From assembly GCF_000299035.1 (NCBI RefSeq), contig NZ_JH921518.1, forward strand, positions 1,028,439 to 1,092,438: 64,000 nt of DNA, given 5' to 3'. Under the pieces are notes generated by a model. That model was not told where the DNA came from, ran no database searches, and saw nothing but the letters and a program-made list of their open reading frames with translations. Shown piece after piece: positions 3,670 through 29,296 of the stretch. Each line of letters begins with the position of its first letter. Within the stretch, counting starts at the first letter, position 1. Source of the DNA: Bacillus bingmayongensis. GTDB taxonomy: Bacteria; Bacillota; Bacilli; Bacillales; Bacillaceae_G. The position numbers and the translations under genes are program-made.

Positions 3670-4480
3670 GGTTCTGTTGCAAAGTTTCTTAACAGATAAA
3701 AAGTTGGTATGATTGCAGATGGATTTTATGCAATCGTTAGTAATTGTTGTAATTCATTGTACGTCGAAAAAACGAAGTTTGGTTGTTGCAAACTTCGTTT
3801 TCGTTTATATAGAGCATGAACGGTTTCAATGCCTTTCAAGGTACGTGAAGCATGACGAATACTTTGAAATCCTGCAGATTTGGCAAAACGCCTTTTTACA
3901 TGTCTATGGTCTTGTTCGATGAGATTGTTCAAATGTTTGACTGTACAATGAGTTGTACGTTTATAAAAGCCTTGTTCCTTTAATTTTTTGAATGCACAAA
4001 GTAATGCTGGTGCTTTATCTGTTGTTAGAACCGTTGGTTCTCCAAACGTTTTCACTAACCTTTTTATAAAGGTATATGCAGCCTGATGATCCCGTTTTTT
4101 ACGAAGTTGAATATCCAATGTGTATCCTTCTTTATCAATTGCACGGTACAGGTAACGCCATTCTCCTTTGACTTTTATATAGGTCTCATCCAATTTCCAA
4201 GATAGTTCTATGCTTTTATTTTTCTTCTTCCAAATTTGATAGATAAGGTTTCCATATTCATGAACCCAGCGCATGATGGTTGTAGGATGAACTGAAACAC
4301 CACGTTCATTCAAAATTTCAGAGACATCACGATAGCTTAAAGAAAAGCGACAATAGTAGCCAACGGCTACCAAAATAATATCTTGTTTAAATTGCTTTCC
4401 TTTAAAATATCTCATGTATGATTCTCCTCACTCTGTTTTGCAAAAGTTTAGCTTAGTTTTAAAAACTTTGCAACAGAACC
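3670..4480 (-). mobile_element. Intact IS6-family insertion sequence (IS240/IS26-like), 811 bp
   Basis: Perfect 18-bp terminal inverted repeats GGTTCTGTTGCAAAGTTT occur at 3670 and, reversed, ending at 4480. An 8-bp direct repeat ATATAAAT (3662-3669 and 4481-4488) flanks the element exactly, as expected of IS6 transposition. It carries one full transposase gene on the minus strand and sits between two genes without breaking either. Confidence 0.96.
3726..4415 (-). CDS. IS6-family DDE transposase
   Basis: 229 residues, normal for IS26/IS240 transposases. An N-terminal helix-turn-helix region (SLSYRDVSEILNERGVSVHP) is followed by the DDE core: first Asp in WKLDETYIKVKG, second Asp in LTTDKAPA, Glu in NLIEQDHRHVKRR. 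All catalytic residues are present. The ATG follows TGAGGAGA. The element looks able to move. Confidence 0.95.
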   Translation of the reverse strand: MRYFKGKQFKQDIILVAVGYYCRFSLSYRDVSEILNERGVSVHPTTIMRWVHEYGNLIYQIWKKKNKSIELSWKLDETYIKVKGEWRYLYRAIDKEGYTLDIQLRKKRDHQAAYTFIKRLVKTFGEPTVLTTDKAPALLCAFKKLKEQGFYKRTTHCTVKHLNNLIEQDHRHVKRRFAKSAGFQSIRHASRTLKGIETVHALYKRKRSLQQPNFVFSTYNELQQLLTIA

Positions 4481-4519: not shown

Positions 4520-5755
4520 TTATTGAAACATTTTTTTAATTCTATTGCGCATGATTAATACAATTCCACCTAGAATGGATAACATTCCTAGAGTAGTTGT
4601 ATTAGATTCCGTTCCCCCGGCGTTAGGAAGTTCTCTCTTATCATTTTCCACTTTAAGAGGCGTGTTCGTTTGTTTCTTCTGTTCTAATTCCGTTACTTTA
4701 TTTTCTACATTTTGCTTCGCCTGTTTTAATTCCGCTATCTCTGCTTCCACATCTTGCTTTGCACGTGTTAATTCATTTAATTTCTCATCTATCGCTTGCT
4801 TTGTTTGCTTCACATCTGCTATTTTCTCTTCTGCTACAGCGTGTTTTGTACGCATTAATTCCGCTAATTTATCTTCCATCGTTTGCTTCATTTGTTTTAA
4901 CTCTAATACTTTTTCTTCTATCGTTTGCTTCGTACGTGTTAATTCGTTTAATTTACTTTCTATCGTTTGCTGTATCTGTTTTAAATCTGATGCTATCTCT
5001 TCTCTACGTTGCTTCGTTTCAGATATTTTCGCTCCTGCATCTTTCCTAATCTGCTTTAATTCTGCTATTTTCTCTTCTACATTTTGTTTTGTCTGTTTTA
5101 ATTCCGCTAATTTCGCTTCTGCATTTTGTTTAATTTGTTGTAATTCTGATACTCGCTCTTCTCTATGTTGTTTCGCTTCAGTTACTTTTTCTTCTACATT
5201 TTGTTTCGTCTGTTGTAATTCTGCTGCTCGCTCTTCTGCATGTTGCTTCACTTCAGATACTTTCTCTTCTACATTTTGTTTCGTCTGTTGTAATTCTGAT
5301 ACTCGCTCTTCTGCATGTTGCTTTGCTTCAGATACTTTCTCTTCTGCATTTTGTTTCGCCTGTTTTAATTCTGATACTCGCTCTTCTGCATGTTGCTTCG
5401 CTTCAGATACTTTTTCTTCCACATTTTGCTTCGCCTGTTTTAATTCTGATACTCGCTCTTCCGCATTTTGCTTCGCCTGTTTTAATTCTGATACTCGCTC
5501 TTCCGCATTTTGCTTCGCCTGTTTTAATTCTGATACTCGCTCTTCCGCATTTTGCTTCGCCTGTTTTAATTCTGATACTCGCTCTTCTGCATTTTGTTTC
5601 GCCTGATTTAGTTCGGATAACTTTTCGTCTGCTTGTTGTTTGATAGAATCATGTATTTTGACGGTATCAGGCACTTCAGCGTTAATTGTGTCAGCTCCCG
5701 CTATCATCGCTAAAGCTAGTGTAGAGATTGCTACTGTTTTTTTCGTACTCATCAT
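4520..5755 (-). CDS. Sortase-anchored coiled-coil surface protein
   Basis: About 411 residues. A signal peptide (MMSTKKTVAISTLALAMIAG) comes first. Residues ~40-370 are heptad-rich, built from 14-residue units of the type ERVSELKQAKQNAE with shorter EEKVSEAKQHAE inserts. The C-terminus is a wall-sorting signal: LPNAG, a hydrophobic span and a positive tail RNRIKKMFQ. LPNAG is an LPXTG variant with Ala at the Thr position. The ATG at 5755 is chosen over one 21 bases upstream because AAAGAGG lies between them. The product should be a long alpha-helical rod covalently linked to peptidoglycan. Its ligand is unknown; M-protein-like binding is only a guess. Confidence 0.85.
   Translation of the reverse strand: MMSTKKTVAISTLALAMIAGADTINAEVPDTVKIHDSIKQQADEKLSELNQAKQNAEERVSELKQAKQNAEERVSELKQAKQNAEERVSELKQAKQNAEERVSELKQAKQNVEEKVSEAKQHAEERVSELKQAKQNAEEKVSEAKQHAEERVSELQQTKQNVEEKVSEVKQHAEERAAELQQTKQNVEEKVTEAKQHREERVSELQQIKQNAEAKLAELKQTKQNVEEKIAELKQIRKDAGAKISETKQRREEIASDLKQIQQTIESKLNELTRTKQTIEEKVLELKQMKQTMEDKLAELMRTKHAVAEEKIADVKQTKQAIDEKLNELTRAKQDVEAEIAELKQAKQNVENKVTELEQKKQTNTPLKVENDKRELPNAGGTESNTTTLGMLSILGGIVLIMRNRIKKMFQ
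4690..5640 (-). repeat. 42-bp in-frame repeats coding for 14-residue coiled-coil units
   Basis: Units decoding as ERVSELKQAKQNAE recur. Copies at about 5437-5600 are almost identical at DNA level; those nearer 4700-5000 are diverged. The gradient suggests recent expansion at the 5' side of the gene. Confidence 0.85.
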
Positions 5756-5908
5756 TTTGTACCTCTTTTCTTTCATGAGTAATGAACTATTATGTGTAAA
5801 TCTGAAGATATAAATATTTATAATACCAGTATAACATTATACCAAATGTTTATAAACGAAACTAGAATAGTAGGGACTCGTAGGGTGAATCATTATAGAG
5901 AGAATGAG

Positions 5909-5939
5909 AAAAGGGAACTCATATATAGAGTTCCCTTTT
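5909..5939 (+). terminator. Perfect 12-bp stem hairpin with T-rich tail
   Basis: AAAAGGGAACTC, loop ATATATA, GAGTTCCCTTTT, then TTCTTATT. No plus-strand gene ends here; on the minus strand it would end transcripts from the hydrolase cluster and its remnant. Confidence 0.7.
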
Positions 5940-5966
5940 CTTATTAAAACGTTCTTCTTAACGGCA

Positions 5967-6190
5967 TTATTGGATTCTTCCGTATCCAACAAAGTGCTTA
6001 CGATTATAAGGTCAATTTAAAACTCGGATATCTACATGACCCCCACCAGCATCATATGTACTGTGGAAGAAAACTAAATCACCAAGTTGAGGGTTTATAT
6101 TTTTTAGAAATTATAAAGCCCTTGTGATATTGGTCAGAATACCAGATATCCTACGTGATTAAAAACATGACTAACAAAGCCAGAACAGTT
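5967..6190 (-). pseudogene. Remnant of a fourth NlpC/P60 hydrolase
   Basis: Pieces of an NlpC/P60 domain can be read in more than one frame. NCSGFVSHVFNHVGY matches the catalytic-Cys segment, PQLGDLVFFHSTYDAGGGHV the catalytic-His segment, and KHFVGYGRIQ followed by a stop matches the domain end (compare NLVGFGRITNF in the intact neighbour). Stops and small deletions separate the pieces, and no wall-binding repeats remain. It lies directly downstream of the intact NlpC gene, as if it were the eroded last member of the tandem array. Confidence 0.75.
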
Positions 6191-6218
6191 TAATATATAC
6201 AACCTTAAATATTATCTA

Positions 6219-7283
6219 TTAAAAATTCGTTATTCTTCCAAATCCAACCAAGTTATTACTATACCAAGAAGTAGATAACTTAGAATATTTAACTTTCATA
6301 CTTTTTCCACTAGCAGCTTCAATAATATCATCTCCGCCAAGATAAATAGCTACATGAGTAATGTTGCTTGCACTATGTGATTCGCTAAAAAATACTAAAT
6401 CTCCTGGCTCAGCATTAGCTCTGCTAATTCTTTGGGAGTTATTATATAATCCTTGAGAAGTCTGATATGCTCTTGAATATCCTGCTTGATTCCATGAATA
6501 ATAAACAAATCCCGAACAATCAAGACCTCTTGCATCTTTACCTCCCCATACATAAGGAACACCCAAATAATTTTGAGCAACATCAAGAACCTTTACCCAG
6601 TGACCACTAGAAGTGAAATATTGCCATTTATTGTCGATTTGTAATTGTCCAGTTACCATTGCGCCGCCTTGGTTGGCATCTAAATAATACCATGTACTAC
6701 CTTCTTGGAACCAACCTGTTTTCATTGCTCCACCATCATCGGCATTTAGATAGTACCATTTTCCATTATCTTGTAACCAGCCCGTTTTCATTGCTCCGCC
6801 ATCATTTCCATCTAAGTAGTACCATTTCCCGTCTACTTTTTCCCAACCTGTTTTCATCGCTCCACCATCATTGGCATTTAGGTAGTACCATTTTCCATTA
6901 TCTTGTAACCACCCTGTTTTCATTGCTCCGCCATTATTTCCATCTAAGTAGTACCATTTTCCATCTACTTTTTCCCAACCTATTTTCATTGCCCCACCAT
7001 CATTGGCATTTAGGTAGTACCATTTACCTTCTACTTGTGCCCAGCCTAGTTTCATCGCTCCACCGGCATTTGGATCAAGGTAGTACCATTTGCCTTCTAA
7101 TGCCAGCCAACCTGTTTTTTTCGCACCGTTTTCATAAAAGAACCATGTTCCACTTTCTTCTTTCACCCAGCCGCTTTGTTGAGTCGCTTGTGTATTTTGA
7201 GCTGTTTCTGCTGAACTTACAATTGGTTGAATGCTCAATCCAAGAGTAGTTGCTAATGTAAGTGCTGCAATTTGTTTTTTCAT
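6219..7283 (-). CDS. Secreted wall-binding NlpC/P60 endopeptidase
   Basis: 354 residues. Signal peptide 1-25 (MKKQIAALTLATTLGLSIQP, cleavage near SSAET). Residues ~35-235 hold nine wall-binding repeats of 22 residues (core GWEKVDGKWYYLDGNNGGAM, CW_binding_1/choline-binding type). Residues ~240-354 are an NlpC/P60 domain: Cys256 in GLDCSGF, His310 in NITHVAIYLG, and GDLVFF between them. Such domains usually cut the gamma-D-Glu-diaminopimelate bond in stem peptides. A GGAGAGA site precedes the ATG. It is the third of three minus-strand paralogues that share the first ~100 residues almost exactly. Confidence 0.92.
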   Translation of the reverse strand: MKKQIAALTLATTLGLSIQPIVSSAETAQNTQATQQSGWVKEESGTWFFYENGAKKTGWLALEGKWYYLDPNAGGAMKLGWAQVEGKWYYLNANDGGAMKIGWEKVDGKWYYLDGNNGGAMKTGWLQDNGKWYYLNANDGGAMKTGWEKVDGKWYYLDGNDGGAMKTGWLQDNGKWYYLNADDGGAMKTGWFQEGSTWYYLDANQGGAMVTGQLQIDNKWQYFTSSGHWVKVLDVAQNYLGVPYVWGGKDARGLDCSGFVYYSWNQAGYSRAYQTSQGLYNNSQRISRANAEPGDLVFFSESHSASNITHVAIYLGGDDIIEAASGKSMKVKYSKLSTSWYSNNLVGFGRITNF

Positions 7284-7355
7284 ATTTCTCTCTCCATTCT
7301 TAGAACTGTATTGTATTTAATATATATCACTCTTTTAAATGTTGAATCTTAAATT

Positions 7356-8531
7356 CTATTTAAATGGTAAATATGGAGTTGGATTAATTTGACCAAATTT
7401 ATATTCCGTTTTCAATTCAAAGTGTAGATGAGGACCAGTAACTCTTCCTGTTGCTCCTACCTTACCTATTACTTGACCTTGTTGAACATAATCCCCTTTT
7501 TGAGCTATTCTTTCACTCATGTGGGCATATAACGTGTAATATCCATCTGCATGCTTGATAACTACAACATTTCCATAGTCGTTAAATGAACCAGGTGAGC
7601 CAAAGCCAGAAAATTCTACAGTACCAGATTTAGCAGCCATAATCGGTGTACCTGTTTTTGCTGCAAAGTCAATACCCTTATGAGATTCATCCCAACGAGG
7701 TCCGTACCCTGAACTCACATTTGGTTTTTTTATAGGCATTTGGTAACCATATGCACTAACTTCTCCAGCATTTTCAAGCCACTGACCATTATCAGCAAAT
7801 ACATAAGTCTTTCCGTCTATAGTAGCTTGTCCAGTTACCATAGCTCCGCCTTTATTCGCATCTAAGTAGTACCATGCACTTCCTTCTTGGAACCAGCCTG
7901 TTTTCATCGCTCCGCCATCATTTCCATCTAAGTAGTACCATTTCCCGTCTACTTTTTCCCAACCCGTTTTCATTGCTCCACCATCATTGGCATTTAGGTA
8001 GTACCATTTGCCATTCTCTTGGAACCAGCCTGTTTTCATTGCTCCGCCATCATTTCCATCTAAGTAGTACCATTTCCCGTCTACTTTTTCCCAACCTGTT
8101 TTCATCGCTCCACCATCATTGGCATTTAGGTAGTACCATTTGCCGTTCTCTTGTAACCAGCCTGTTTTCATTGCTCCGCCATTATTTCCATCTAAGTAGT
8201 ACCATTTTCCGTCTACTTTTTCCCAACCTATTTTCATTGCTCCACCATCATTGGCATTTAGGTAGTACCATGTCCCATTTACTTGGGCCCAGCCTGTTTT
8301 CATTGCTCCACCGGCATTTGGGTCAAGGTAATACCATTTGCCTTCTAATGCAAGCCAACCTGTCTTTTTCGCACCGTTTTCATAGAAGAACCATGTTCCA
8401 TTTTCTTCTTTTACCCAACCACTTTGTTGAGTTTCTTGTATATTTTGAGCTGTTTCGGCTGAACTTACAATTGGCTGAATGCTCAATCCAAGAGTAGTTG
8501 CTAATGTAAGTGCTGCAATTTGTTTTTTCAT
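7356..8531 (-). CDS. Secreted wall-binding M23 (LytM-type) metallopeptidase
   Basis: 391 residues. It has the same signal peptide as its neighbours and ten wall-binding repeats (~35-255, the last diverged). The M23 domain spans ~262-391. The zinc site is complete: His284 and Asp288 in HKGID, and HLH at 368-370; His337 (LYAHMS) is the usual catalytic His. M23 enzymes cut peptide cross-links or bridges. Only a short TAGGATT precedes the ATG, so translation may be weaker than for the flanking genes. Gaps to neighbours are 50 and 72 bases, fitting one transcript. Confidence 0.92.
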   Translation of the reverse strand: MKKQIAALTLATTLGLSIQPIVSSAETAQNIQETQQSGWVKEENGTWFFYENGAKKTGWLALEGKWYYLDPNAGGAMKTGWAQVNGTWYYLNANDGGAMKIGWEKVDGKWYYLDGNNGGAMKTGWLQENGKWYYLNANDGGAMKTGWEKVDGKWYYLDGNDGGAMKTGWFQENGKWYYLNANDGGAMKTGWEKVDGKWYYLDGNDGGAMKTGWFQEGSAWYYLDANKGGAMVTGQATIDGKTYVFADNGQWLENAGEVSAYGYQMPIKKPNVSSGYGPRWDESHKGIDFAAKTGTPIMAAKSGTVEFSGFGSPGSFNDYGNVVVIKHADGYYTLYAHMSERIAQKGDYVQQGQVIGKVGATGRVTGPHLHFELKTEYKFGQINPTPYLPFK

Positions 8532-8581
8532 AATCCTAATAACCTACTAAATTTATAAATAGATATATTGATATATTGTTT

Positions 8582-9517
8582 TTAAGGTAATACGTATATT
8601 TTAACTGTTTTTCTTTCCCAATTACTTGCTTCCTGTTTTGAAGGAGTAAATACATCTATTTTATTACCTTTAATAGCACTACCAGTATCTCTAGCCTCAG
8701 CTGGTCCATAACCTTCAACATAAACTTTTGATCCAAGACGAATAACTGAAGGATCTACTGCAATCACTTTCAAATTAGGATTAGCTGTTAAATCATCGCC
8801 CATTGCTGTTTTGACATGTTCCCCAGGTCTATAACCATTTTCTGCTGGATCATTTGTATATGCTGTTGACGTCACTGTTAATTCACGAGTATTTATCCAT
8901 TGACCATTATCTTTAAAATAATTCATTTTCCCATCAATTCTATTCCAACCATTCACCATGGCCCCACCATTATTGGCATCTAAGTAATACCATTGATCAT
9001 TCTCTTGGAACCAGCCTGTTCTCATCGCTCCGCCATCATTTCCATCTAAGTAGTACCATTTTCCATTCTCTTGGAACCAGCCTGTTTTCATTGCTCCGCC
9101 ATCATTTCCATCTAAGTAGTACCATTTTCCATTCTCTTGGAGCCAGCCTGTTTTCATCGCTCCGCCGTTATTTCCATCTAAGTAGTACCATTTTCCGTCT
9201 ACTTTTTCCCAACCTATTTTCATTGCTCCACCATCATTACCATTTAGGTAGTACCATTTACCTTCGACTTGTGCCCAGCCTAGTTTCATCGCTCCACCGG
9301 CATTTGGATCAAGGTAATACCATTTGCCTTCTAATGCAAGCCAACCTGTCTTTTTCGCACCGTTTTCATAGAAGAACCATGTTCCAGTTTCTTCTTTTAC
9401 CCAATCACTTTGCTGAGTTGCTTGCGTATTTTGAGCTGTTTCTGCTGAACTTACAATTGGCTGAATGCTTAAACCAAGAGTAGTCGCTAACGTAAGTGCG
9501 GCAATCTGTTTTTTCAT
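8582..9517 (-). CDS. Secreted wall-binding 3D-domain protein (putative lytic transglycosylase)
   Basis: 311 residues: the shared signal peptide, eight wall-binding repeats (~35-205), then a 3D domain (~212-311). The three Asp that name the domain are present: Asp255 (IAVDPSVI), Asp277 (ARDTGSA) and Asp288 (NKIDVF). The 3D/MltA-like double-psi barrel acts on glycan strands in resuscitation-promoting and MltA-type enzymes; the exact reaction here is inferred. GGGAG precedes the ATG. It is the promoter-proximal gene of the trio. The region upstream has a TATAAT-like box near 9556 on the minus strand but no clear -35. Confidence 0.9.
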   Translation of the reverse strand: MKKQIAALTLATTLGLSIQPIVSSAETAQNTQATQQSDWVKEETGTWFFYENGAKKTGWLALEGKWYYLDPNAGGAMKLGWAQVEGKWYYLNGNDGGAMKIGWEKVDGKWYYLDGNNGGAMKTGWLQENGKWYYLDGNDGGAMKTGWFQENGKWYYLDGNDGGAMRTGWFQENDQWYYLDANNGGAMVNGWNRIDGKMNYFKDNGQWINTRELTVTSTAYTNDPAENGYRPGEHVKTAMGDDLTANPNLKVIAVDPSVIRLGSKVYVEGYGPAEARDTGSAIKGNKIDVFTPSKQEASNWERKTVKIYVLP

Positions 9518-10034
9518 AGTTTCATTTCTCCCTTTAAGTATTCATAATCGTTAAATCATTATATAACATTATTTGTGTATTTTACATAATTTTTTTTTGT
9601 TAAAGTTATTATTTTCAATCTATTCAACCTTTTATGAATCCTAGTTCATCATAAAAACGAATAACCATTTATTAAATTCCTTACTTCTTTTGAATTATTA
9701 TGTATAAAATATTCAGAAATTTAATTCCGCTTTCATATCTTTAAAGATAAACAGATTTGTTGATTCATATACAAAATTTCAACCTTCTAACATAAGAATT
9801 CCTCTAAAAACATTGTTAATTCTTAAATAAAGAATTTAGTAGTACTCGTTAGCCCTGTATAAAATTAATAACTTGAAAAGAAATACTCGTGCAGATACTT
9901 ATATAACTTAATTCATTACTTCACATCCTTCCCAATAAAAATAGAACTAATGTTCGTTTTTTATTATATAATAAATTAAATGTACATATTTATTAACCTA
10001 TTTTTGGAATTAATTTATCTTTGTTTTTTCTTAG
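9518..10034. other. AT-rich intergenic region
   Basis: About 520 bases, very AT-rich, holding the likely promoter of the hydrolase trio near 9550-9590. No reading frame or RNA gene recognised further right. Confidence 0.5.
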
Positions 10035-10331
10035 TTTGAATGCAAAACAATTAAAAATCCCTTAGTATGGTTAAATAGCTTATTCGTCTCGTTTTCAAAC
10101 CTTGGAATTACTTTAGGAACCTCTATTGGCGGCTGGTTCATTTCTCAATTAGGAATTCACCAGCTTATCTGGAGCGGATTCATATTTACACTGCTTTCTT
10201 TTTTATTGATCATAGTAAAAATAAAATTTTTCATTTCAACTCTAGTACCCAAGCATCGTTATCAAGCTAAAATAATTCTATCTCTATTAATAGAAAACAG
10301 TTTAAGTGTTACTACAAAAGATGAACCGTAA
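10035..10331 (+). pseudogene. C-terminal fragment of an MFS transporter
   Basis: An open frame of ~98 codons without a start reads NPLVWLNSLFVSFSNLGITL, then a GTSIGGW loop, a membrane span and a polar tail. The NLGITLGTSIGG segment is typical of AraJ/PbuE-like 12-TM drug or purine exporters near helix 11. Only the last quarter of a normal ~400-residue transporter is left, so this is a deletion remnant. Confidence 0.75.
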
Positions 10332-10693: not shown

Positions 10694-11245
10694 TTATCGA
10701 GAATGCCCATGACCGCGCGTTCTAATTTGGTAGGACAAAGCTGCCAGACTAATCGTCACTCCCCATATAAAAAATCCTCCATAAACCGGGATTATCACTC
10801 CTGGCTCGAAATCCTGGATGTCAGAGAGTCTTATGGAACCCACACTTAATTTATAAAATGTCACGATGCAGACACTGGTAAAGGTTAACCCTCCGAGCCA
10901 AGCAGGAATGAGCAGCAGCCAGCCAGGAACCTTCCGTCCACCAATGCCCGGTAATCTTTTCGGGATAATCACTCCCCATGGCCGAACCAGCGCGAGTGCA
11001 AGCAATGAAGCGATGATAGCTAAAATAACAGTTAGATCAACCCCGTAGGAATACAAAAAACGGCTAACCTGATCAGCGTTGGTTCTTATAGATGCATGCA
11101 ATGCCTCAACACCATTCTCAGAAACCAATAAGGGAACTCCAAACGCCCAAAGCGTCTTTAAAATGGCATAAGGAATGAGAGCGACCGATGCTGCATATCC
11201 CCACTTCTTAGACAGCCACCATTCACCGGATGTGTTTCGTGTCAT
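10694..11245 (-). CDS. Four-span membrane protein of unknown function, higher GC
   Basis: 183 residues from an ATG behind a perfect AAGGAGG at 8-base spacing; an in-frame start 45 bases upstream lacks such a site. About four hydrophobic spans are visible (near residues 13-35, 65-88, 105-130 and 148-172), with short polar tails and a His-rich C-terminus. Base composition differs from its neighbours: sampled 60-base stretches run 45-55% GC against about a third for the flanks, which suggests transfer from a higher-GC Firmicute. No family is recognised with confidence. Confidence 0.7.
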   Translation of the reverse strand: MTRNTSGEWWLSKKWGYAASVALIPYAILKTLWAFGVPLLVSENGVEALHASIRTNADQVSRFLYSYGVDLTVILAIIASLLALALVRPWGVIIPKRLPGIGGRKVPGWLLLIPAWLGGLTFTSVCIVTFYKLSVGSIRLSDIQDFEPGVIIPVYGGFFIWGVTISLAALSYQIRTRGHGHSR

Positions 11246-11434
11246 GTTAATAACCTCCTTATTAAAGGATATGTGGAAAAACATAACCATTACACCATTT
11301 ATAATAGTACAGAAAAACTACTTTGATATGCGTCCATAGACCTGTTTATACACACAACCAGCGGTCTGTTCACAAACAAAAGCGGATACTATTTTGAGTG
11401 CAGCTTTGAGTAGAAACATGCTGACAATCCCCCA

Positions 11435-15271: not shown

Positions 15272-16942
15272 TTATGCCAACAGTTTTGCTAGTTTTTTCT
15301 TTTCACTTTCAAATAAGTCTAATCGCTCGATTTGTAATGCCTCTTCCGGCTGATTTACATGATATAACTGATAGAAATGATGCGTACGAATATCCAATCG
15401 ATTGTTTAATTGATGCCAATGGCTCCAGTGGTGCGCGTCTTTCTTTGGAATATAAGGCTGAAGCACCCCAGGCACTTTTTCTTTATACCCTAACCCCCGG
15501 CGCCCAATCGTAAAAGCTGCAGATTGATGAATAGAAATGCCCAATTTCCGCATATATTTCATCTTCCCTGAGATTGAAGTGTAAGCGGGATTGACTTGAA
15601 AGACAGCCACACCCCTTTTATCTGCACGACTGAGAATTGCACTTGTCATCTTCTCATAAGCAAACATACTCTTCATTCGATTCACTCGTTTATTTCCATA
15701 ACGATCCCCTGTTTTCGATTGGGTTGTATCTAACTTCTCGATGACAATCGGCTTGTTATACCGCTCTGCTAAGTCAACTAAGCGAATGGCCTCCGCTTCG
15801 ATGATCTTTGTGATTTGTCCAGTGGATTTACCCAGAAGAGAAAAACGGAGGGAACCACTTCCTTTGTAATTCCCATCCTTCGTTACATTTGCCCAAGCAA
15901 CATGTTCGAGATTACAATCTACACCAACAACACCATCTGATGTACTGTAATTCGTGTGAGGGTTTTCCGGCACATCGACTAAACATTTCACAATGTAATA
16001 CTCCCCATGATCTTCCACAGACCAGGCAATCGGTTTACCATGTTTTTTCTTATTCTTACACTGTAATTGGGTTGTGATTATTTCTTCAATCATTTCTTGT
16101 CCATACGGGAACGTAACTAATGGAAACTGAAGTGTTTTCCCGGAACTTGTCGTCATCCATAATTCTTTTGTCTCCGGCACATACCGAAACACAAAATTCC
16201 CATATTTGGCATCTTTACGGCCAGATAGAATGAGTTGTTTATTTCGAGCACGGGAAAATAATGTTTTCCATTTATCATGATTACGTACAAACTCATCGAT
16301 GGTAAATTGAGAGCAGAACAGTCTTTTACTTCCAAATACTGCGCTTGGAATATGTGTTTTATATGATGTAAGTTTCTGAGTTAAACGGTATTGTCTGTGG
16401 GTTAAAAGGCCGATTTCCGCCTGAATCCTTTTGATTTGAATATCTAAGTATTGGTGCTCAAACAGATATTCATTCAGCCAAATCAACGTGTCTTTTTTAC
16501 GGGATAAGGAGATGAGATTGTTGTGCTTCGCGAAGCGGGTATTTTTCGGAAACGTCAGTTTTCCTTTCACACAACTTTGTTTGATTTTACGAAGATTTGT
16601 CAGTTTTGTCCGTTCTTGCTTCAACTTTTTCTTGAGTTTCTTAATCTTCTCTTGTGTTTGCTTCTCATATATTTTTTGTAACTCCATTAAACCTGTAAAC
16701 AGCGCCTTTGCTTCTTGCATCGCACTGTTTGCATAGTAATCATTCAATTGATAGTTCCGTTTGAGAACAAGATGAAGACTATCTGTATACATCTTACGGT
16801 TCCAACATTTTTCTCGGACGATTGTTTGAAACGCAAAGCGTTTCGCCTGATTAAATGTTTCGATTGTCTTTGTCAATATATCTACCATTTCATACGGCAT
16901 ATCTCTTTTATAGATTCGTTTCGAAAAATACGCTTTCTTCAC
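15272..16942 (-). CDS. TnpB-related RuvC-fold protein with altered active site
   Basis: 556 residues, longer than typical TnpB (~400). The N-terminal half is basic with a Lys-rich coiled coil (~90-125). The RuvC region keeps Asp342 (VVGVDCN) and Glu402 (PIVIEKLD) and the NPAYTS motif (451-456). In ordinary TnpB this motif is followed by a CxxC...CxxC zinc finger and a D-x-N-A-A motif. Here there are no Cys pairs, and the third acidic residue is replaced by His472 (IHQSAAFTI). Either the active site is rearranged or the protein does not cut DNA. It belongs to the accessory TnpB-related class of IS605-superfamily elements. No open frame for a transposase lies nearby. Confidence 0.85.
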   Translation of the reverse strand: MKKAYFSKRIYKRDMPYEMVDILTKTIETFNQAKRFAFQTIVREKCWNRKMYTDSLHLVLKRNYQLNDYYANSAMQEAKALFTGLMELQKIYEKQTQEKIKKLKKKLKQERTKLTNLRKIKQSCVKGKLTFPKNTRFAKHNNLISLSRKKDTLIWLNEYLFEHQYLDIQIKRIQAEIGLLTHRQYRLTQKLTSYKTHIPSAVFGSKRLFCSQFTIDEFVRNHDKWKTLFSRARNKQLILSGRKDAKYGNFVFRYVPETKELWMTTSSGKTLQFPLVTFPYGQEMIEEIITTQLQCKNKKKHGKPIAWSVEDHGEYYIVKCLVDVPENPHTNYSTSDGVVGVDCNLEHVAWANVTKDGNYKGSGSLRFSLLGKSTGQITKIIEAEAIRLVDLAERYNKPIVIEKLDTTQSKTGDRYGNKRVNRMKSMFAYEKMTSAILSRADKRGVAVFQVNPAYTSISGKMKYMRKLGISIHQSAAFTIGRRGLGYKEKVPGVLQPYIPKKDAHHWSHWHQLNNRLDIRTHHFYQLYHVNQPEEALQIERLDLFESEKKKLAKLLA

Positions 16943-22832: not shown

Positions 22833-23585
22833 ATGAATGAAAAAGTAAAAATAAAAGAGTTTATACAAATTTTAAAAAGGCGACTCTTAATCATTATACT
22901 TACGACAATTTGTACTAGCGGGTTCATTATTATTTCATCCATGTACCTTATGAAACCAATTTATCAGTACTCCACCCAAGTTCTTGCTGGATCTTTAGGC
23001 GTAGAAAAAGAAGAAAATCCAGTAAATAGAGTACAAGATAACAGACAGCTAGCTCTGTCATATATGGATATTATAAAAAGCCCATATATCATGATAGGCG
23101 TAAAAGAAGAGTTAAACCTAACTCGTTCAAGCTATGATTTACTTAAACAGGTTTCCGTTACTAATAGAAACGATTCACAGATTATTACAATTTCAGTGAA
23201 AGATTCTAATCCACAATTAGCTAAAAAAATTGCACAATCTGTCATAAATCAATCCATATCTAAATTTAAAAGCTATGCAAATGCAAATCAACTTAATATT
23301 CTTAATAATTCTGAGGTAACAGAAGAAGCTGAACTACTTTTTCCAAAAACCAAATTCATTATAGCTATTTCCATCATAATCAGCTTTTTTGCCGGAATTG
23401 GCATGGCAATGCTGCGAGAACACTTTGATGATTCCACTTACAACAATCGAGAACTCGAACATCTTGGAATCTCGTTATTAGGAAGGGTGAAATTAAATAC
23501 AAAACAAAGAAACAACAAACAAAAAACAGCTTATAAAAGCTTACCTTCTATGAAACGAGGTGAACATAATGACCATCAAATTTAA
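22833..23585 (+). CDS. Wzz/CapA-type polysaccharide chain-length modulator
   Basis: 250 residues with membrane spans at ~18-40 and ~174-193 and a large extracellular loop between, the layout of Gram-positive tyrosine-kinase modulators (YwqC/CapA/CpsC). The start of the loop (KPIYQYSTQVLAG) and the helix SYMDIIKSPYIM fit the family. The proline-rich stretch usually seen before the second span is reduced to a single Pro (LLFPKTKF). First gene of the EPS operon; its end overlaps the next gene by 17 bases. It normally sets polymer length together with the adjacent kinase. Confidence 0.88.
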   Translation: MNEKVKIKEFIQILKRRLLIIILTTICTSGFIIISSMYLMKPIYQYSTQVLAGSLGVEKEENPVNRVQDNRQLALSYMDIIKSPYIMIGVKEELNLTRSSYDLLKQVSVTNRNDSQIITISVKDSNPQLAKKIAQSVINQSISKFKSYANANQLNILNNSEVTEEAELLFPKTKFIIAISIIISFFAGIGMAMLREHFDDSTYNNRELEHLGISLLGRVKLNTKQRNNKQKTAYKSLPSMKRGEHNDHQI

Positions 23586-24189
23586 GAGGAAATATTTGTT
23601 TAATCCATATGACATCGCCATCAAAGAACGATTTTATAGTATATGTAACCAGATTGAACCGAGCCTTCAAAAGGAAAAGTCAATATTAATGGTTACTTCC
23701 CTTGCACAAACACAAAAGATGACCAATGCTACTGCTTATTTGGCCCTAGCTTTTTCAGAACAACGAAAACGAGTATTGGTAGTGGATGCGAATCTGCGTC
23801 AACCTTCTTTACACCATGTGTTTAATATCGATCATTCATTTGGCCTAACCACCTTACTCTTAAAAGAGCAAAATAAAGATACTCCAATAAAAATATCGGA
23901 TTATCTATCTTGTTTATCTACAGGTGAAGGCCTTTATGAGCCAGTAACATTGTTAACATTAGAGACCTTCCCAATCCTAATTGAGGAGTGGAAAGAGCAT
24001 TTTGATATCATTCTATTTCACACATCCGATTTCCTAAACACACCAGACGCACAATTCCTCACAAAATATTGTGATGGCGTTGTTTTAATGATACAGGAAG
24101 GTCGTGATAAGTTAGAAAAAATTACGAGTGTAAAAAAACAACTCGAACATAGCAAACATGAAATAATCGGTGCAGTCATTATTTCATAA
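23569..24189 (+). CDS. Degenerate bacterial tyrosine-kinase (CpsD/YwqD-like) homologue
   Basis: 206 residues from an ATG behind CGAGGTG. The fold and location match CpsD-type kinases: LVVDANLRQPSLHHVF is the Walker A' segment (about 70-85) and FDIILFHTSDFLNTPDAQ the Walker B region. The P-loop is lost: where the family has SPxPGEGKSTTAANLA this protein has SLAQTQKMTNATAYLA, so Gly-x-Gly-Lys-Ser is absent. Walker B Asp is His (LFHTS). The C-terminal Tyr cluster is also missing. It should neither bind ATP normally nor autophosphorylate, yet the frame is intact and tightly packed in the operon. It may act as a structural partner of the modulator. Confidence 0.82.
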   Translation: MTIKFKRKYLFNPYDIAIKERFYSICNQIEPSLQKEKSILMVTSLAQTQKMTNATAYLALAFSEQRKRVLVVDANLRQPSLHHVFNIDHSFGLTTLLLKEQNKDTPIKISDYLSCLSTGEGLYEPVTLLTLETFPILIEEWKEHFDIILFHTSDFLNTPDAQFLTKYCDGVVLMIQEGRDKLEKITSVKKQLEHSKHEIIGAVIIS

Positions 24190-24202
24190 AGGGGGATAAC
24201 CT

Positions 24203-24841
24203 TTGGACTCAAAAATAAAGATTGATAGACAGGTAGAAATACAAGTAAAACCTCTATCAACTTCATCATACCTTCTTGCTAAACGACTTATAGATTTTGT
24301 TGTTTCGTTTTTCATGTTGTTACTTTTATCGCCCATTTTGGTTTTTTTTTGCATCCTTATCCCAATCGAATCAACCGGTGCTCCCTTCTTTTATCAACGA
24401 CGTCTAGGAAAAAACGGAAAAGATTTCAAATTAATAAAGTTACGCTCCATGTTTTTAGATGCTGAAAAAAACGGCCCTCAATGGGCAAGTAAAGAGGATC
24501 CTAGGATTACAAGAATAGGTGCGTTTATAAGAAAAACTAGAATTGATGAAATCCCTCAATTTATTAACGTATTAAGAGGAGATATGTCACTCGTTGGCCC
24601 TAGACCTGAAAGAGAATATTTCTATAACGAGTTTGATAAGTTATTGCCTAATTTTAAACATCGTTTACTTGTAACCCCTGGAATAACAGGATGGGCGCAA
24701 GTAAATGGAGGATATGATTTAACTCCCGAAGAAAAATTAGCATTCGACTTATATTATATCCAGCATAGATCATTCGCTATGGAAATCAAGATTTTGTGTC
24801 GAACAGCAGCCATTGTATTTACTGGAAATGGAGCTAGATAA
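24203..24841 (+). CDS. Initiating sugar-phosphate transferase (WcaJ/PglC-like)
   Basis: 212 residues, TTG start behind AAAGGGGG. PF02397 features: one membrane segment (~29-52), FYQRRLGKNGKDFKLIKLRSM, DEIPQFINVLRGDMSLVGPRPE (the Asp-Glu and PRP of the active site) and the C-terminal GITGWAQVNGG. It transfers a sugar-1-phosphate from a UDP-sugar to undecaprenyl phosphate, the first committed step of repeat-unit assembly. The short form lacks the N-terminal multi-span region of WbaP. The sugar cannot be told. Confidence 0.92.
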   Translation: MDSKIKIDRQVEIQVKPLSTSSYLLAKRLIDFVVSFFMLLLLSPILVFFCILIPIESTGAPFFYQRRLGKNGKDFKLIKLRSMFLDAEKNGPQWASKEDPRITRIGAFIRKTRIDEIPQFINVLRGDMSLVGPRPEREYFYNEFDKLLPNFKHRLLVTPGITGWAQVNGGYDLTPEEKLAFDLYYIQHRSFAMEIKILCRTAAIVFTGNGAR

Positions 24842-24863
24842 ATATTGAGAGGAAGAAGAGCAA

Positions 24864-25841
24864 ATGGAAAAAGTGCTAGTAACGGGGGCTTCGGATTTAT
24901 CGGATCCCATATTGTAGACAAATTACTTCATAATAATTATGAAGTAGCTGTGTATGATAACTTATCCACTGGACACGTAAGTAATGTCCATTCGAAATGT
25001 ATAGCTTTCTTTAATACTGTAGAAGATGAACGATCATTAGAAAAAGCGATGGAGACGTTTGAACCTGACTTTATAGTTCACCAAGCTGCGCAAGTTAGTG
25101 TACAAAACTCCATTTCAAATATAACGAATGATGCAAGAATCAATATAACAGGTTCAACAAATATCATAAAGCTCTCTCAGAAATATGGTGTTAAAAAGAT
25201 TATATTTGCTTCTTCAGCAGCTGTATATAGCAATTCTAAAATCATGCCTATTCCAGTCTCACACCCTACTCGTCCCTTATCACCTTATGGCGTCTCGAAA
25301 CAAACAGCAGAGGAATATTTAAAAATATTTAAAGCTCGCAAAAGAATTATATGATATAGACTATGTCATTCTTCGATATAGCAATGTTTATGGTCCAAGG
25401 CAGACTGTAAACGGTGAGGGCAGAGTTATTTCAATCTTTATCAACCATGTAATTCAAAAGGAGCAATCTGTTATTTACGGGGATGGCTTACAAACAAGAG
25501 ATTTTATCTATGTAGACGATGTAGCAAGCGCCAATCTTCAGGCATTGAAATATAATGGGAGCGGTACTTTCAATATATCATCATCAATTCGTACAAGTAT
25601 CAATGAAGTATTCTCGATGATTCAATCAATCGGAAAACAAAATATATCCCCCATTTATCAACCTGCAAAAGACGGTGATCTCAAAGAAAGCTTGCTCTGC
25701 AATAAAAAGAGCATTCAAAAATTAGACTGGCAACCTATATATTCATTGGAAAAGGGTCTTGCCAATACATATGATTATTACCTTAAGCAAAAAGACTCTA
25801 TTTTACCTAGTGGAAAAGAACCTACATCTGTACTTAAGTAA
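24864..25841 (+). pseudogene. NAD-dependent epimerase (GalE-like) with two compensating frameshifts
   Basis: The ATG at 24864 behind GAGAGGAAG opens MEKVLVTG, then the frame shifts by -1 at a run of five G (~24883-24887). The rest of the Rossmann motif (GGFGFIGS) and SSAAVYSNS...SPYGVSK (Ser/Tyr/Lys catalytic segment) continue in the second frame. A +1 shift near 25335 (AAA run) returns to the first frame for LAKELYDIDYVILRYSNVYG and the C-terminus. All three parts add up to a normal ~325-residue UDP-glucose 4-epimerase-type protein. Either the gene is broken or the two one-base changes are sequence errors. It would supply UDP-Gal or a related sugar. Confidence 0.85.
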
Positions 25842-25871
25842 CTTTACAATTGTAAATTGGGAGAGAAATAA

Positions 25872-27344
25872 GTGAATAAGAAAACAAACTCAATTATGAA
25901 AAATATATTCCACTTACTTTACAGCACAATTTTAGCGAATGTTTTAAATGCAAGTACACTCATACTATTGGCCAATTACTTTAACTCAAAGAACTATGGA
26001 ATATTTAGTGTAGCACTAGCTCTTTCCATGGTCATGCATTTTTTTACAGATTTAGGAGTTAGTAATACGTTCCTTCGTGAAGGATCAAAACAGGAAAACC
26101 TTCATGCTACATTTTTTTCTTATATAAAAGTTCGAGTAGTATGTTTACTGTTAACATTTATTATTTTTTCTTTCGGTATCCATATCTTTTACCATGAACA
26201 ACAAATTCTTTATATGATGTATAGTTTAATGATTCCTTTAATCATCGGACTCGTGCTGCAAAGCATAGGAATAACCTACTTTCAATTAGCTGAAAGAATG
26301 CAATTTATCGCATCTATAAAAATCTTCTCGGCCATTGTCTTAGTCATATTCACCATCTTGTGCATAAGCTTCAAAGTGGATATACATGTAACAGCTTTTT
26401 TATATGGTTTTTCTTATTTAGTCGGGGGGATTTACTGTCTGTATTTACTCAGAAAAAACATGGAATTTAAATGGAAAGTCCCTTTTCAAAAAAAATTACT
26501 GATCCATATTAGTCCGTTCTTAATGAGTGGGTTATTTATTATCTTAACTCCACAACTAGGCCCATTAGTATTAGAAAAAACACTTCCCTTAGGGCTTGTT
26601 GGGCTCTTTGCAGTAGCTTACCGAATCCCCTCAGCTCTCTATCAAATACCAGGGGTTATTGCAGGTGCCTTTTTCCCACTGTTATTTAAGCATAGTAGTC
26701 ACGGGGAGATAAAGAAACATACAGAATTAAATATCTTGCAAATGAAATTTATGTCCTTGATTGGGATGTGTATGACAATATCTTTATTCTATTTATCTCC
26801 CTATCTGATCACGATTTTGTTTGGAGATAAATGGGGTTCTGCCGTTCAACCTTTAAAAATATTGTCCTTTATTATTGTCTTACAAGGATTTAACATCGCT
26901 ATCGCTGATGGTCTTACAACAAGAGGATTGCAAAATCGCCGTACTCTTGTTCAATTTATAACCCTCTCTATTGGCTTAGTGTCTTTTTATTATCTTAGTG
27001 TTACTTATGCAATAGCAGGGGCAGCTTTTTCTGTTTTAGCGATGGAAATCGTATCATTTATTGGTTATATATTAGCTAATCCAATCAGAAAAACAATAGT
27101 AACCAAGGTCATTATTCTATACGGATCCTACTTTTCGGTAAGTTTTATCCTATTACACTACTTATTAGATAAGTTTCCTTTTATAGCCATGTTTTCTACC
27201 ATTATCTTAATGTCTACGATGGTTTTACTATTTGATCAAGCAACTCGGAACTTGATTAAAGATTTTATAAGAAAGAAAAAACAACAGAATATCAATCATT
27301 TAAAAGACGGGAGACAACGAGGGAATGGAAAGATTACAAATTAA
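25872..27344 (+). CDS. Wzx-type polysaccharide flippase
   Basis: 490 residues, GTG start behind GGGAGAG. About twelve to fourteen hydrophobic spans and the N-terminal LANYFNSKNYGIFSVALALS, typical of the MOP/polysaccharide-transporter family (PF01943/PF13440). It moves lipid-linked repeat units across the membrane. It overlaps the polymerase gene by 20 bases. Confidence 0.9.
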   Translation: MNKKTNSIMKNIFHLLYSTILANVLNASTLILLANYFNSKNYGIFSVALALSMVMHFFTDLGVSNTFLREGSKQENLHATFFSYIKVRVVCLLLTFIIFSFGIHIFYHEQQILYMMYSLMIPLIIGLVLQSIGITYFQLAERMQFIASIKIFSAIVLVIFTILCISFKVDIHVTAFLYGFSYLVGGIYCLYLLRKNMEFKWKVPFQKKLLIHISPFLMSGLFIILTPQLGPLVLEKTLPLGLVGLFAVAYRIPSALYQIPGVIAGAFFPLLFKHSSHGEIKKHTELNILQMKFMSLIGMCMTISLFYLSPYLITILFGDKWGSAVQPLKILSFIIVLQGFNIAIADGLTTRGLQNRRTLVQFITLSIGLVSFYYLSVTYAIAGAAFSVLAMEIVSFIGYILANPIRKTIVTKVIILYGSYFSVSFILLHYLLDKFPFIAMFSTIILMSTMVLLFDQATRNLIKDFIRKKKQQNINHLKDGRQRGNGKITN

Positions 27345-28545
27345 AAGAAATATTTCTACTATAGAAGTATTTCTTTTGTTACTTTTTATTACACTTAGCA
27401 AATATAATTTGTCCATCGGTTTTTCGTTAAAAATTTATATGATTTTTCTAGCCGTTTTTTTCTGTATTTACTTTCGAGACTTTTACTTTCGCCCTCTTTA
27501 TCATTATGAAATTTTATTGCTTTTATTTTATTTTACCTATTGTCTAAGCGGTGCTTTTTCACAGTATCCAGAATCAAGTATTCGCGTCATTCTAGGAGTA
27601 ATCCTTGTCCTTATTTGCTACTTCATCATGAGATATATGCTGGAGCAAGCTTCAATTCGTGCTATTGAAGCTTCCATCGCAAATGTCGGAATACTATTTA
27701 ACATTACGAGTTTGCTATTGTACATAATTGGACTAAAAATAACCGGAGGATCTCCAATAGGCGTTGAGATTACCTCTTACGGATTACTATTAGATAGAGA
27801 TTATCCAAGATTAATTGGACTGCTTGATGACCCAAACATCTTCATTTTTTATAATACATTGTTTTTTTGTTTTTACTTAACACACTTAAAAGGATTAAAA
27901 AACTCATTGGGATTCATCTTATGTATCATTACCAACCTTCTTACTTTTTCCCGAGGCGGTATTGTCGCTCTAATACTCGTTATCATTATATATATACTGT
28001 TAGCGGATTTTCTAAAAAAGGTAAAAATGATACTCGTTGCTCTGTTATGTCTAGTTGCCATCTACCTCGCATGTTCTTTTATGCAAATCGATTTGAATCA
28101 GATTATTTCCAGCCGTATCAATGACTTTTCTTCTGATAACGGAAGTGGTCGATTTGAATTATGGAAACAGGCGATTCACTATTTTATGTCTCATCCCCTT
28201 TTGGGAATCGGCGCCTTTAATTTTTCGGATTATTATGCATTTGAACATAATGAAAGACTATATGTTCATAATACATATCTAGAAATCTTAGTAGAGGCAG
28301 GAATTATTGGTTTCCTTTTTTACCTTTCTTTTTTATTCCTGTTCCTAATCAAGATCTTTAAAACGAAATCGCATCGTGAAAAACCGTATATTATTCTTAC
28401 ACTTTTTGCTTTTTTATTACAGATGGTATCCCTTTCTCTTATGATTAATGAAGCGCTTTTCTCCTTTTTAGCAATTGCTTTAAAATACATTTCTGTATAT
28501 GAAAGAAAAGAGGCTGGTTTTTATGATATACACAAAAAAAATTAA
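27325..28545 (+). CDS. Wzy-type polymerase / O-antigen-ligase-like protein
   Basis: 406 residues with ~10-12 membrane spans. The large periplasmic-type loop has GSGRFELWKQAIHYFMSHPL and LYVHNTYLEILVEAGIIGF, the conserved region of PF04932 with its His. Joins repeat units outside the membrane. It overlaps both neighbours, so translation is probably coupled. Confidence 0.88.
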   Translation: MERLQIKRNISTIEVFLLLLFITLSKYNLSIGFSLKIYMIFLAVFFCIYFRDFYFRPLYHYEILLLLFYFTYCLSGAFSQYPESSIRVILGVILVLICYFIMRYMLEQASIRAIEASIANVGILFNITSLLLYIIGLKITGGSPIGVEITSYGLLLDRDYPRLIGLLDDPNIFIFYNTLFFCFYLTHLKGLKNSLGFILCIITNLLTFSRGGIVALILVIIIYILLADFLKKVKMILVALLCLVAIYLACSFMQIDLNQIISSRINDFSSDNGSGRFELWKQAIHYFMSHPLLGIGAFNFSDYYAFEHNERLYVHNTYLEILVEAGIIGFLFYLSFLFLFLIKIFKTKSHREKPYIILTLFAFLLQMVSLSLMINEALFSFLAIALKYISVYERKEAGFYDIHKKN

Positions 28546-29296
28546 TGAATCATTGGTTTCTGTTATCACTCCCTCTTATAACAGCTCTCCTTTTATAAAA
28601 GAAACCATTGAATCCGTTCAGGCTCAATCATATGCTAACTGGGAAATGATTATCGTTGATGATCAGTCGAAAGATGACTCCGTTCATGTCATCAAACAGT
28701 ATATAGAAAAAGACCCACGAATTAAACTTATTACTTTAAATCAAAATGCTGGTGCTGCTAGGGCTAGAAATATAGCATTAAAAGAAGCTCAAGGAGATTA
28801 TATTGCCTTTTTAGACAGCGATGATCTCTGGTTACCTACCAAACTAGAAGAACAAGTCACTTTTATGAAAAAAGGTAACCTTGCTTTTTCTTTTACCTCT
28901 TATTCTTTAATTGACGAACAAGGAAATGCAATGAATATTAAAGTTACTGCACCGAAAGTAGTAGATTATAAATATTTGCTGGGAAATACGACGATTGGCT
29001 GTTTAACCGTGATGTTAGATAGACATCAATTTAAACACATTGAAATGCCTATTATCCAACCTGAAGATACTGCCCTATGGTTAGTATTATTACGGCTAGG
29101 ATATCAAGCATATGGTTTACAAAAAATTTTATCTAAATATCGTATTGTCAGTAACTCTACTTCAAGGAATAAATTAAAAGCTGCCTACCGATATTGGAAA
29201 CTCTTACGAAACCAAGAAAAGTTAAACTTTGTAAAAGCCAACTTTTATTTTAGTCAATATGCCTATCATGCATACAAGAAAAACAGAGGAGACTGA
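28523..29296 (+). CDS. Family 2 glycosyltransferase
   Basis: 257 residues. The ATG at 28523 follows AAAGAGG; a start 24 bases upstream contains that site and is rejected. GT-A core: SVITPSYNSSPFI, IIVDDQSKDDS, and metal site DSDD (98-101) with IQPEDTALW as the later acidic motif. No membrane span, so a cytosolic inverting transferase that extends the repeat unit. Donor unknown. Confidence 0.9.
   Translation: MIYTKKINESLVSVITPSYNSSPFIKETIESVQAQSYANWEMIIVDDQSKDDSVHVIKQYIEKDPRIKLITLNQNAGAARARNIALKEAQGDYIAFLDSDDLWLPTKLEEQVTFMKKGNLAFSFTSYSLIDEQGNAMNIKVTAPKVVDYKYLLGNTTIGCLTVMLDRHQFKHIEMPIIQPEDTALWLVLLRLGYQAYGLQKILSKYRIVSNSTSRNKLKAAYRYWKLLRNQEKLNFVKANFYFSQYAYHAYKKNRGD

What the first reader, a model, noticed from the sequence alone, without database searches (positions are those of the whole stretch)
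6219..9517. Three tandem wall hydrolases on one shared scaffold, each with a different cutting domain
Seen: three adjacent minus-strand genes share the signal peptide MKKQIAALTLATTLGLSIQP and near-identical 22-residue wall-binding repeats (8-10 copies), then switch to NlpC/P60, M23 and 3D domains. Each catalytic set is complete. Family knowledge: these cut stem peptides, cross-links and glycan strands respectively. Inference: a cassette in which one targeting module is copied to three cutters, able to open peptidoglycan at all main bond types. Choline-binding-type repeats are not a usual targeting module in this genus, so the ligand is an open question.
Basis: partly seen in the sequence, partly recalled or inferred. 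Interest (0 to 1): 0.75.

Follow-up and report, generated by a model that had tools for sequence, protein, structure and literature searches.

The report
Three wall-cutters sharing one choline-type anchor
Three neighbouring genes of a Bacillus-like bacterium encode secreted wall-cutting enzymes with almost the same row of anchor repeats but different blades; the anchor looks like the kind that grips choline on cell walls, and it seems to change as a set while the blades are kept.

Summary
Three minus-strand genes (8582-9517, 7356-8531, 6219-7283) share residues 1-30 and 8-10 choline-binding-type repeats, then carry 3D, M23 and NlpC/P60 domains. New: (1) A phage-like contig (L003) has a two-gene version (NlpC, 3D) with nearly the same leader. 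Its last repeat plus 3D domain is 82% identical to the window's, but its scaffold only 49%; its own two scaffolds differ at 6 of 547 nt. The anchor seems homogenised within each genome. (2) A broken L003-type NlpC domain lies just downstream: cutters have been exchanged. (3) Window repeats keep the choline-cage second Trp in 23 of 25 units, L003's in 2 of 16. In 16 other genomes with such repeats, this Trp goes with LicD (8 of 8 with LicD, 1 of 8 without). Phosphocholine is the predicted ligand. The host genome is not held, so its lic genes could not be sought, and no structure prediction ran.

The parts
8582..9517 (-). First gene: signal peptide, 8 repeat units, C-terminal 3D domain (311 aa)
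8951..9403 (-). Repeat scaffold of the 3D gene (residues 39-189)
   Evidence: boundaries
8588..8770 (-). 3D domain (residues 250-310); aligns with YuiC of known structure
7356..8531 (-). Second gene: signal peptide, 10 repeat units, C-terminal M23 peptidase (391 aa)
7833..8417 (-). Repeat scaffold of the M23 gene (residues 39-233)
   Evidence: boundaries
7404..7685 (-). Peptidase_M23 domain (residues 283-376)
   Evidence: Zoocin A and lysostaphin among PDB sequence matches
6219..7283 (-). Third gene: signal peptide, 9 repeat units, C-terminal NlpC/P60 (354 aa)
6651..7169 (-). Repeat scaffold of the NlpC gene (residues 39-211)
   Evidence: boundaries
6237..6563 (-). NLPC_P60 domain (residues 241-349); Cys and His present, Glu at the third triad position
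5974..6189 (-). Broken remnant of a second, different NlpC/P60 domain, of the kind in L003
   Evidence: stops in all three minus-strand frames of 5950-6230; 83% over 81 nt and 71% over 140 nt to the L003 NlpC gene; only 30 bits to the neighbouring intact NlpC gene
5907..5941 (-). Terminator-like hairpin downstream of the set (14 pairs)
   Evidence: the number of such sites in the region is not above the shuffled expectation (3 against 3.1)

Best explanation
The locus is a tandem set of three secreted peptidoglycan hydrolases with a shared N-terminal targeting module of choline-binding-type repeats (the layout of pneumococcal LytB and LytC, which also have the repeats N-terminal). The module most likely folds as a beta-hairpin solenoid (inferred from homology; no model could be computed) and most likely holds phosphocholine on a wall polymer, placing a lytic-transglycosylase-like 3D domain, an M23 endopeptidase and an NlpC/P60 peptidase on the same wall sites for turnover or daughter-cell separation. 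The coding module, not the upstream DNA, is kept alike inside a genome by duplication and/or gene conversion, while cutters are gained, lost and swapped at a boundary just before the last repeat. Shown: architecture, within-genome similarity, swap boundary (two genomes), fossil, cage residues, co-occurrence of the cage residue and lic genes in other genomes. Inferred: ligand, target wall, bonds cut, gene conversion as opposed to recent duplication.
For: Architecture. Cage: neighbouring repeat pairs with Trp, Trp, then Tyr/Phe: 5 of 7, 8 of 9 and 6 of 8 in the window; 1 of 8 and 1 of 8 in L003. The canonical site is two Trp of one hairpin, a Tyr of the next and a Met (PMC5137146 passages; PMC4929436 passages). 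Calibration of the second-Trp measure: two pneumococcal phage lysins 3 of 3 and 5 of 5 units, two GH70 enzymes 1 of 15 and 2 of 12. Other genomes: 16 of 299 in one unnamed order have the repeats; LicD in 8 of these 16 and in 1 of 20 repeat-free genomes; second-Trp fraction at least 0.4 in 8 of 8 LicD genomes and 1 of 8 others, Fisher p 7e-4; LicA homologue in 7 of 16 and 0 of 20. One genome (G278) has NTP-transferase, EamA, choline-kinase, flippase and LicD genes in a row, a lic-type locus by Pfam. Set-wise change: last repeat + 3D domain, window versus L003, 82% aa, pS 0.43; scaffold 49% aa, pS 0.80; within-genome scaffold pS 0.27-0.35 (window) and 0.135 (L003). L003 pair: 6 differences in the first 547 nt, upstream sequences disagreeing from the fourth base.
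Against: The host genome is not held, so lic genes in it could not be sought; none in the 64-kb window, which says little. Repeats are 22 residues, not the usual 20 (LytB has 17-23). G176 has second Trp in 2 of 2 units but neither LicD nor LicA; G222 has LicD but no LicA match; G152 has LicD but no repeats. Four of the eight LicD matches are short and close to the cut-off (30, 27, 27, 23 bits against 22.6), and LicD is a broad family; the G892 LicA match covers only half the query at 31%; NCBIfam models for the G278 lic-type proteins stay below their cut-offs. Genomes are not independent (G215/G278 LicA 97% identical; four, probably five, LicD-negative genomes carry the same subtilase-like protein, named by eye). 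Only one or two loci per genome were scored in the 16. Repeat arrays align uncertainly, which inflates scaffold divergence. Conversion signals inside the window are weak (p 0.18, 0.04, 0.04). Only two genomes show the set. L003 upstream regions do have some similarity (11 of 500 shuffles reach it).
Confidence: 0.56

Rival explanations
1. Weapon, not housekeeping: the three enzymes are bacteriolysins aimed at other bacteria that carry choline on their walls, and the producer's own wall lacks the ligand.
For: Secreted, no membrane or sortase anchor seen by eye in the sequences; M23 domain matches Zoocin A and lysostaphin among solved structures; the L003 pair sits on a phage-like contig between an integrase and the terminase; an anchor that changes quickly and as a set fits a race with target walls.
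Against: No immunity-type gene recognised among the flanking genes scanned, though the 198-aa protein at 10694-11290 has no family; B. cereus is reported to have Lic-1 enzymes (PMC10434233), so the ligand may be its own.
Confidence: 0.22
2. The repeats bind another wall glycan or secondary wall polymer, as glucan-binding repeats do; the Trp residues are a by-product of recent repeat amplification.
For: The repeat superfamily includes glucan binders and clostridial toxin repeats (PMC4929436 passages); repeat length 22; Rossellomorea and B. arachidis plasmid proteins with such repeats have 0 of 11 and 1 of 7 second Trp, so types without the cage exist in Bacillaceae.
Against: Second Trp is kept in 23 of 25 window units, as in two choline lysins and unlike two GH70 enzymes.
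Confidence: 0.2
3. No concerted evolution: each lineage recently fused cutters to copies of one ancestral scaffold, so within-genome likeness is only recent duplication.
For: Within-window conversion tests are weak; the window's M23 domain and its intact NlpC domain have no close counterpart in the 17 kb of L003 held (NlpC tails 42% aa).
Against: The 3D domain and an L003-type NlpC domain (as a fossil) existed in both lineages, yet the L003 scaffolds differ by 6 of 547 nt with disagreeing upstream DNA; copying confined to the coding module after the 3D split is the simplest account.
Confidence: 0.35

Closest known systems
Pneumococcal choline-binding proteins (LytA, LytB, LytC, Pce, CbpD)
   Same: One repeat module on several different wall-active domains; Trp-Trp-Tyr-Met cage; LytB and LytC also have the repeats N-terminal
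   Different: 22-residue repeats; 3D, M23 and NlpC cutters instead of amidase, glucosaminidase, lysozyme, esterase, CHAP; tandem genes; Bacillus-like host
B. cereus Ent family and EntFM/CwpFM (SH3 modules with 3D or NlpC domains)
   Same: Secreted; C-terminal 3D or NlpC domain on a shared N-terminal module; same kind of host (EntC model passed by 33888-35540, 786 bits against 770)
   Different: SH3 modules replaced by choline-type repeats; Ent models far below cut-off for the 3D protein, EntFM model far below cut-off for the NlpC protein
Zoocin A and lysostaphin (M23 bacteriolysins)
   Same: Secreted M23 domain with a separate targeting domain (layout recalled)
   Different: Targeting repeats of another family, N-terminal; no recognised immunity gene next door; three cutters, not one
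YuiC / Sps (3D) proteins
   Same: 3D domain with the three Asp aligned (PMC1084345 passages)
   Different: Different targeting module
Tandem repeat genes on faecal phage record MT836070.1
   Same: Two adjacent genes with Trp-rich choline-type repeats on different wall-active domains
   Different: Lysozyme-like and L,D-transpeptidase-like domains (named by eye), no shared leader; not a close relative (34% over the M23 protein)

Membership tests
Choline-binding proteins | Tandem GW repeats of Pfam Choline_bind_1 / Choline_bind_3 | tested here: met
   all three over the cut-offs
Choline-binding proteins | Canonical cage: Trp, Trp in one repeat, Tyr in the next, Met | tested here: met
   Trp, Trp, then Tyr/Phe in 19 of 24 neighbouring pairs over the three proteins, each with a Met in the first repeat of the pair
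Choline-binding proteins | Repeat of about 20 residues | tested here: inconclusive
   22 residues; 17-23 known in LytB
Choline-binding proteins | Binds choline or phosphocholine | not testable with these tools
   needs a binding assay
Choline-binding proteins | Host incorporates phosphocholine (lic genes) | not testable with these tools
   host genome not held; window alone has none
Peptidase M23 | Zn-binding HxxxD and HxH | tested here: met
   HKGID and HLH in the translation; Pfam 117 bits; motif recalled
NlpC/P60 | Cys-His catalytic pair | tested here: met
   LDCSGF and THVAIY aligned with solved relatives
NlpC/P60 | Third polar residue, His in the solved relatives printed | tested here: inconclusive
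   Glu at that position in the window, Asp by eye in L003
3D / Sps | Three invariant Asp | tested here: met
   aligned with YuiC 4wli
B. cereus Ent (SpsE) family | Two N-terminal SH3 domains | tested here: not met
   no SH3 family over its cut-off; for the 3D protein NCBIfam EntA-D models give 133-151 bits against 560-780
Zoocin/lysostaphin bacteriolysins | Adjacent immunity gene | tested here: inconclusive
   five flanking genes scanned give no such Pfam or NCBIfam family, but some have no family at all

The most novel reading that the evidence does not exclude
The set is a missing reader of phosphocholine on the wall of a Bacillus cereus-like organism, and the aiming module of a whole hydrolase set is swapped as one unit between lineages (choline type in the window, a type without the cage in L003) while the cutters stay orthologous, so that aim and blade evolve separately.
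Probability: 0.4. Interest if true: 0.7.

Novelty: new variant of a known kind. Interest (0 to 1): 0.52.

Why it matters
A 2023 survey says B. cereus contains Lic-1 enzymes while no phosphocholine glycoconjugate is reported for it, and lists Bacillus spp. among organisms with an unknown phosphocholine structure (PMC10434233, passages and section 5 seen). Proteins with a full choline cage in such a host would turn that into a simple question: is choline on the wall, and do these enzymes go there? The second-Trp rule gives a cheap way to sort the large repeat family into likely choline binders and others. If the set-wise change holds in more genomes, wall hydrolases offer a clean natural case of a targeting domain evolving in concert across several enzymes.

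Tried and rejected
Same DNA in plasmids: none for 6219-9517. Protein searches of plasmids and phages gave distant repeats or lone catalytic domains among the rows listed. One phage record covered 96% of the M23 protein at 34%; its C-terminal part is not M23 but looks like an L,D-transpeptidase. The one genome-contig scan found only a Lachnospiraceae MAG (44 stretches, 1 relative; exact 7-residue patterns, so weak evidence of absence). Five viral-contig scans gave L003 (also as L004 and L031) plus distant loci L005-L011 and L032-L039, which I did not study. A LicA search of plasmids gave 40 records, no Bacillus among the genera named.

Reaching the B. cereus group through the genome search failed: with the EntC-like protein at E 1e-45, 0 of 398, 0 of 19 and 0 of 120 genomes; at the default limit 199 of 199 matched, best-scoring row 59% identity. 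Hence the three-gene arrangement could not be counted across that group; 104 of 368 genomes matched the 3D-type protein at 1e-22; no listed row spans scaffold and 3D domain (query ranges lie in 26-226 or 183-311); the listing was cut. Searches served only to find handles.

A composite-transposon reading was not tested beyond noticing one IS6 element. A run test over a concatenation of two blocks was redone on the 387-nt gap-free block alone, because the second block was out of repeat register; I rely. A first regex for repeat units picked the wrong residue in some repeats and was replaced by the one.

Structure prediction was asked for 14 times and the queue was full each time, so no fold search was made.

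Papers: PMC4929436, PMC5137146, PMC4595770, PMC1084345, PMC6813931 passages; PMC10434233 passages and section 5; all others search listings only. That I found no report of choline-binding wall hydrolases of the B. cereus group or of concerted evolution of such repeats rests only on the searches.
Full report
WHAT IS THERE. Three minus-strand ORFs lie at the stated coordinates. They share residues 1-30 exactly. Each has a run of choline-binding-type repeats (Choline_bind_3 and Choline_bind_1, over cut-off) and ends in a different catalytic domain: 3D at 74 bits, Peptidase_M23 at 117 bits, NLPC_P60 at 88 bits. With the 19-residue first unit and the divergent last unit there are 8, 10 and 9 units; the full units are 22 residues. 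The genes are 50 and 72 nt apart, with no minus-strand terminator-like site between them and a 14-pair hairpin at 5941-5907 downstream; the scan counts are not above shuffled expectation. The host looks like a B. cereus-group or nearby chromosome: the protein at 33888-35540 passes the EntC model (786 bits against 770). No whole genome is held.

CATALYTIC PARTS. The 3D domain aligns with YuiC of known structure, with its three Asp. Sps/3D proteins were proposed to be lytic-transglycosylase-like (PMC1084345, passages). M23 has HKGID and HLH (motif recalled), with Zoocin A and lysostaphin among its PDB matches. The NlpC/P60 domain has Cys and His, but Glu where the four solved relatives printed have His. 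'Complete' is therefore not shown for it, and no amidase or glucosaminidase is in the set.

A SECOND SET. An IMG/VR contig, L003 (an isolate-type record number, by recall), has two genes with nearly the same leader: NlpC (from its MKKQ start at 8001 to 9050, plus) and 3D (9231-10217, minus). They lie between an integrase and the terminase and portal genes, so probably in a prophage. Their scaffolds differ at 6 of the first 547 nt of the coding sequence, then diverge; upstream the sequences disagree from the fourth base on, although a local alignment of the 72 nt upstream is reached by only 11 of 500 shuffles. Between window and L003, the last repeat plus 3D domain is 82% identical in protein (pS 0.43), but the scaffold is 49% identical (pS 0.80, saturated). 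Within the window the scaffolds have pS 0.27-0.35; within L003, 0.135. The last repeat before 3D (GWNRIDGKM.YFK.NGQW) is alike in both genomes, so the exchange boundary lies before it. The simplest account is that the coding module is copied or converted within a genome while the cutters descend separately. Caveats: repeats align uncertainly, the test inside the window is weak (p 0.18, 0.04, 0.04), and there are only two genomes.

A FOSSIL CUTTER. Directly after the NlpC gene, 6189-5974 (minus) holds a broken NlpC domain with stops in all three frames. It is 83% identical over 81 nt and 71% over 140 nt to the L003 NlpC gene, against 30 bits to the intact neighbour. The lineage most likely once had the L003-type cutter and now has another NlpC domain beside its remains.

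LIGAND. The canonical choline site has two Trp of one repeat, a Tyr of the next and a Met (PMC5137146 and PMC4929436, passages). Neighbouring repeat pairs with Trp, Trp, then Tyr/Phe: 5 of 7, 8 of 9, 6 of 8 in the window; 1 of 8 and 1 of 8 in L003. Second Trp per unit: 6 of 7, 9 of 10, 8 of 8 (23 of 25) against 1 of 8 and 1 of 8. Calibration: two pneumococcal phage lysins 3 of 3 and 5 of 5; two GH70 enzymes 1 of 15 and 2 of 12 (their ligands by recall).

TEST IN OTHER GENOMES. LicD is found in 8 of these 16 and in 1 of 20 repeat-free genomes (20 of the 283 negatives were tested). Second-Trp fraction is at least 0.4 in 8 of 8 LicD genomes and 1 of 8 others (Fisher p 7e-4; at a 0.5 threshold 7 of 8 against 1 of 8, p 0.005; rank test p 0.004). 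A LicA homologue occurs in 7 of 16 and 0 of 20. Against the rule: G176 (2 of 2 Trp, neither gene), G222 (LicD, no LicA match), G152 (LicD, no repeats); four of the eight LicD matches are short and only just over the cut-off (23-30 bits against 22.6), though the G851 and G892 loci encode proteins 41-43% identical to the LicD-like protein of G278 beside a flippase 57-63% identical to its flippase. In the family of G215, 11 of 19 genomes have repeat matches; the two with LicD have 0.78 second Trp, the nine without 0-0.09. In G278 the genes lie in a row: NTP transferase, EamA permease, choline kinase, flippase, LicD by Pfam; NCBIfam models stay below their cut-offs. The genomes are not independent and only one or two loci each were scored in the 16, so the p values are optimistic.

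READING. Best supported: a choline-type aiming module shared by three wall cutters, acting most likely on the producer's own wall. A 2023 survey says B. cereus contains Lic-1 pathway enzymes while no phosphocholine glycoconjugate is reported for it (PMC10434233, section 5). Main rivals are bacteriolysins against choline-bearing neighbours and repeats that bind another polymer. The general idea (one binding module, several cutters) is known from pneumococcal choline-binding proteins and from the B. cereus Ent proteins; two adjacent repeat genes with other domains also stand on a faecal phage record. The combination, the host type and the set-wise change are what is new as far as I could search.

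LIMITS. No structure was computed (14 full-queue answers, listed under Tried and rejected). The B. cereus group could not be reached in the genome collection. Bond specificity, expression and binding are untested.

Noticed in passing
window 3670-4480: Complete-looking IS6-family element (transposase 3726-4415) with matching terminal inverted repeats and an apparent 8-bp target duplication (ATTTATAT), read by eye; 82% identical to a copy on a B. arachidis plasmid.
   Followed up: partly
window 4520-5776: 418-aa repeat-rich, probably coiled-coil surface protein with 42- and 75-bp tandem repeats and an LPNAG sorting-like end, directly downstream of the hydrolase set.
   Followed up: no
window about 10060-10240, plus strand: Apparent remnant of an MFS transporter in the 1.2-kb gap upstream of the set, seen by eye only.
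   Followed up: no
window 33888-35540: EntC-like protein (SH3-SH3-3D, over the EntC cut-off), a second, SH3-anchored 3D protein in the same window.
   Followed up: partly
window 48188-50340: DnaB-like helicase and DnaD-like loader; parts of them (427 and 261 nt) are 71% and 68% identical in DNA to the replication genes of L003.
   Followed up: partly
window 15272-16942: 556-aa protein with a weak Cas12f-like match in PADLOC (42 bits), possibly TnpB-like.
   Followed up: no
window 22833-32011: Polysaccharide cluster (Wzz, sugar transferase, epimerase, flippase, Wzy-type ligase, two glycosyltransferases); no LicD among the genes scanned.
   Followed up: partly
L029:4260-7154: B. arachidis plasmid protein annotated as S-layer protein: choline-type repeats mostly without the cage Trp (1 of 7), an SH3-like domain, long helical-looking part.
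   Followed up: no
L003:8001-10217: The two L003 genes are convergent, so their nearly identical scaffolds form inverted repeats around the two catalytic domains; recombination could invert the segment between them.
   Followed up: no
   Followed up: partly
L111:2-2538: Faecal phage record with two adjacent repeat genes, one lysozyme-like and one L,D-transpeptidase-like by eye.
   Followed up: no
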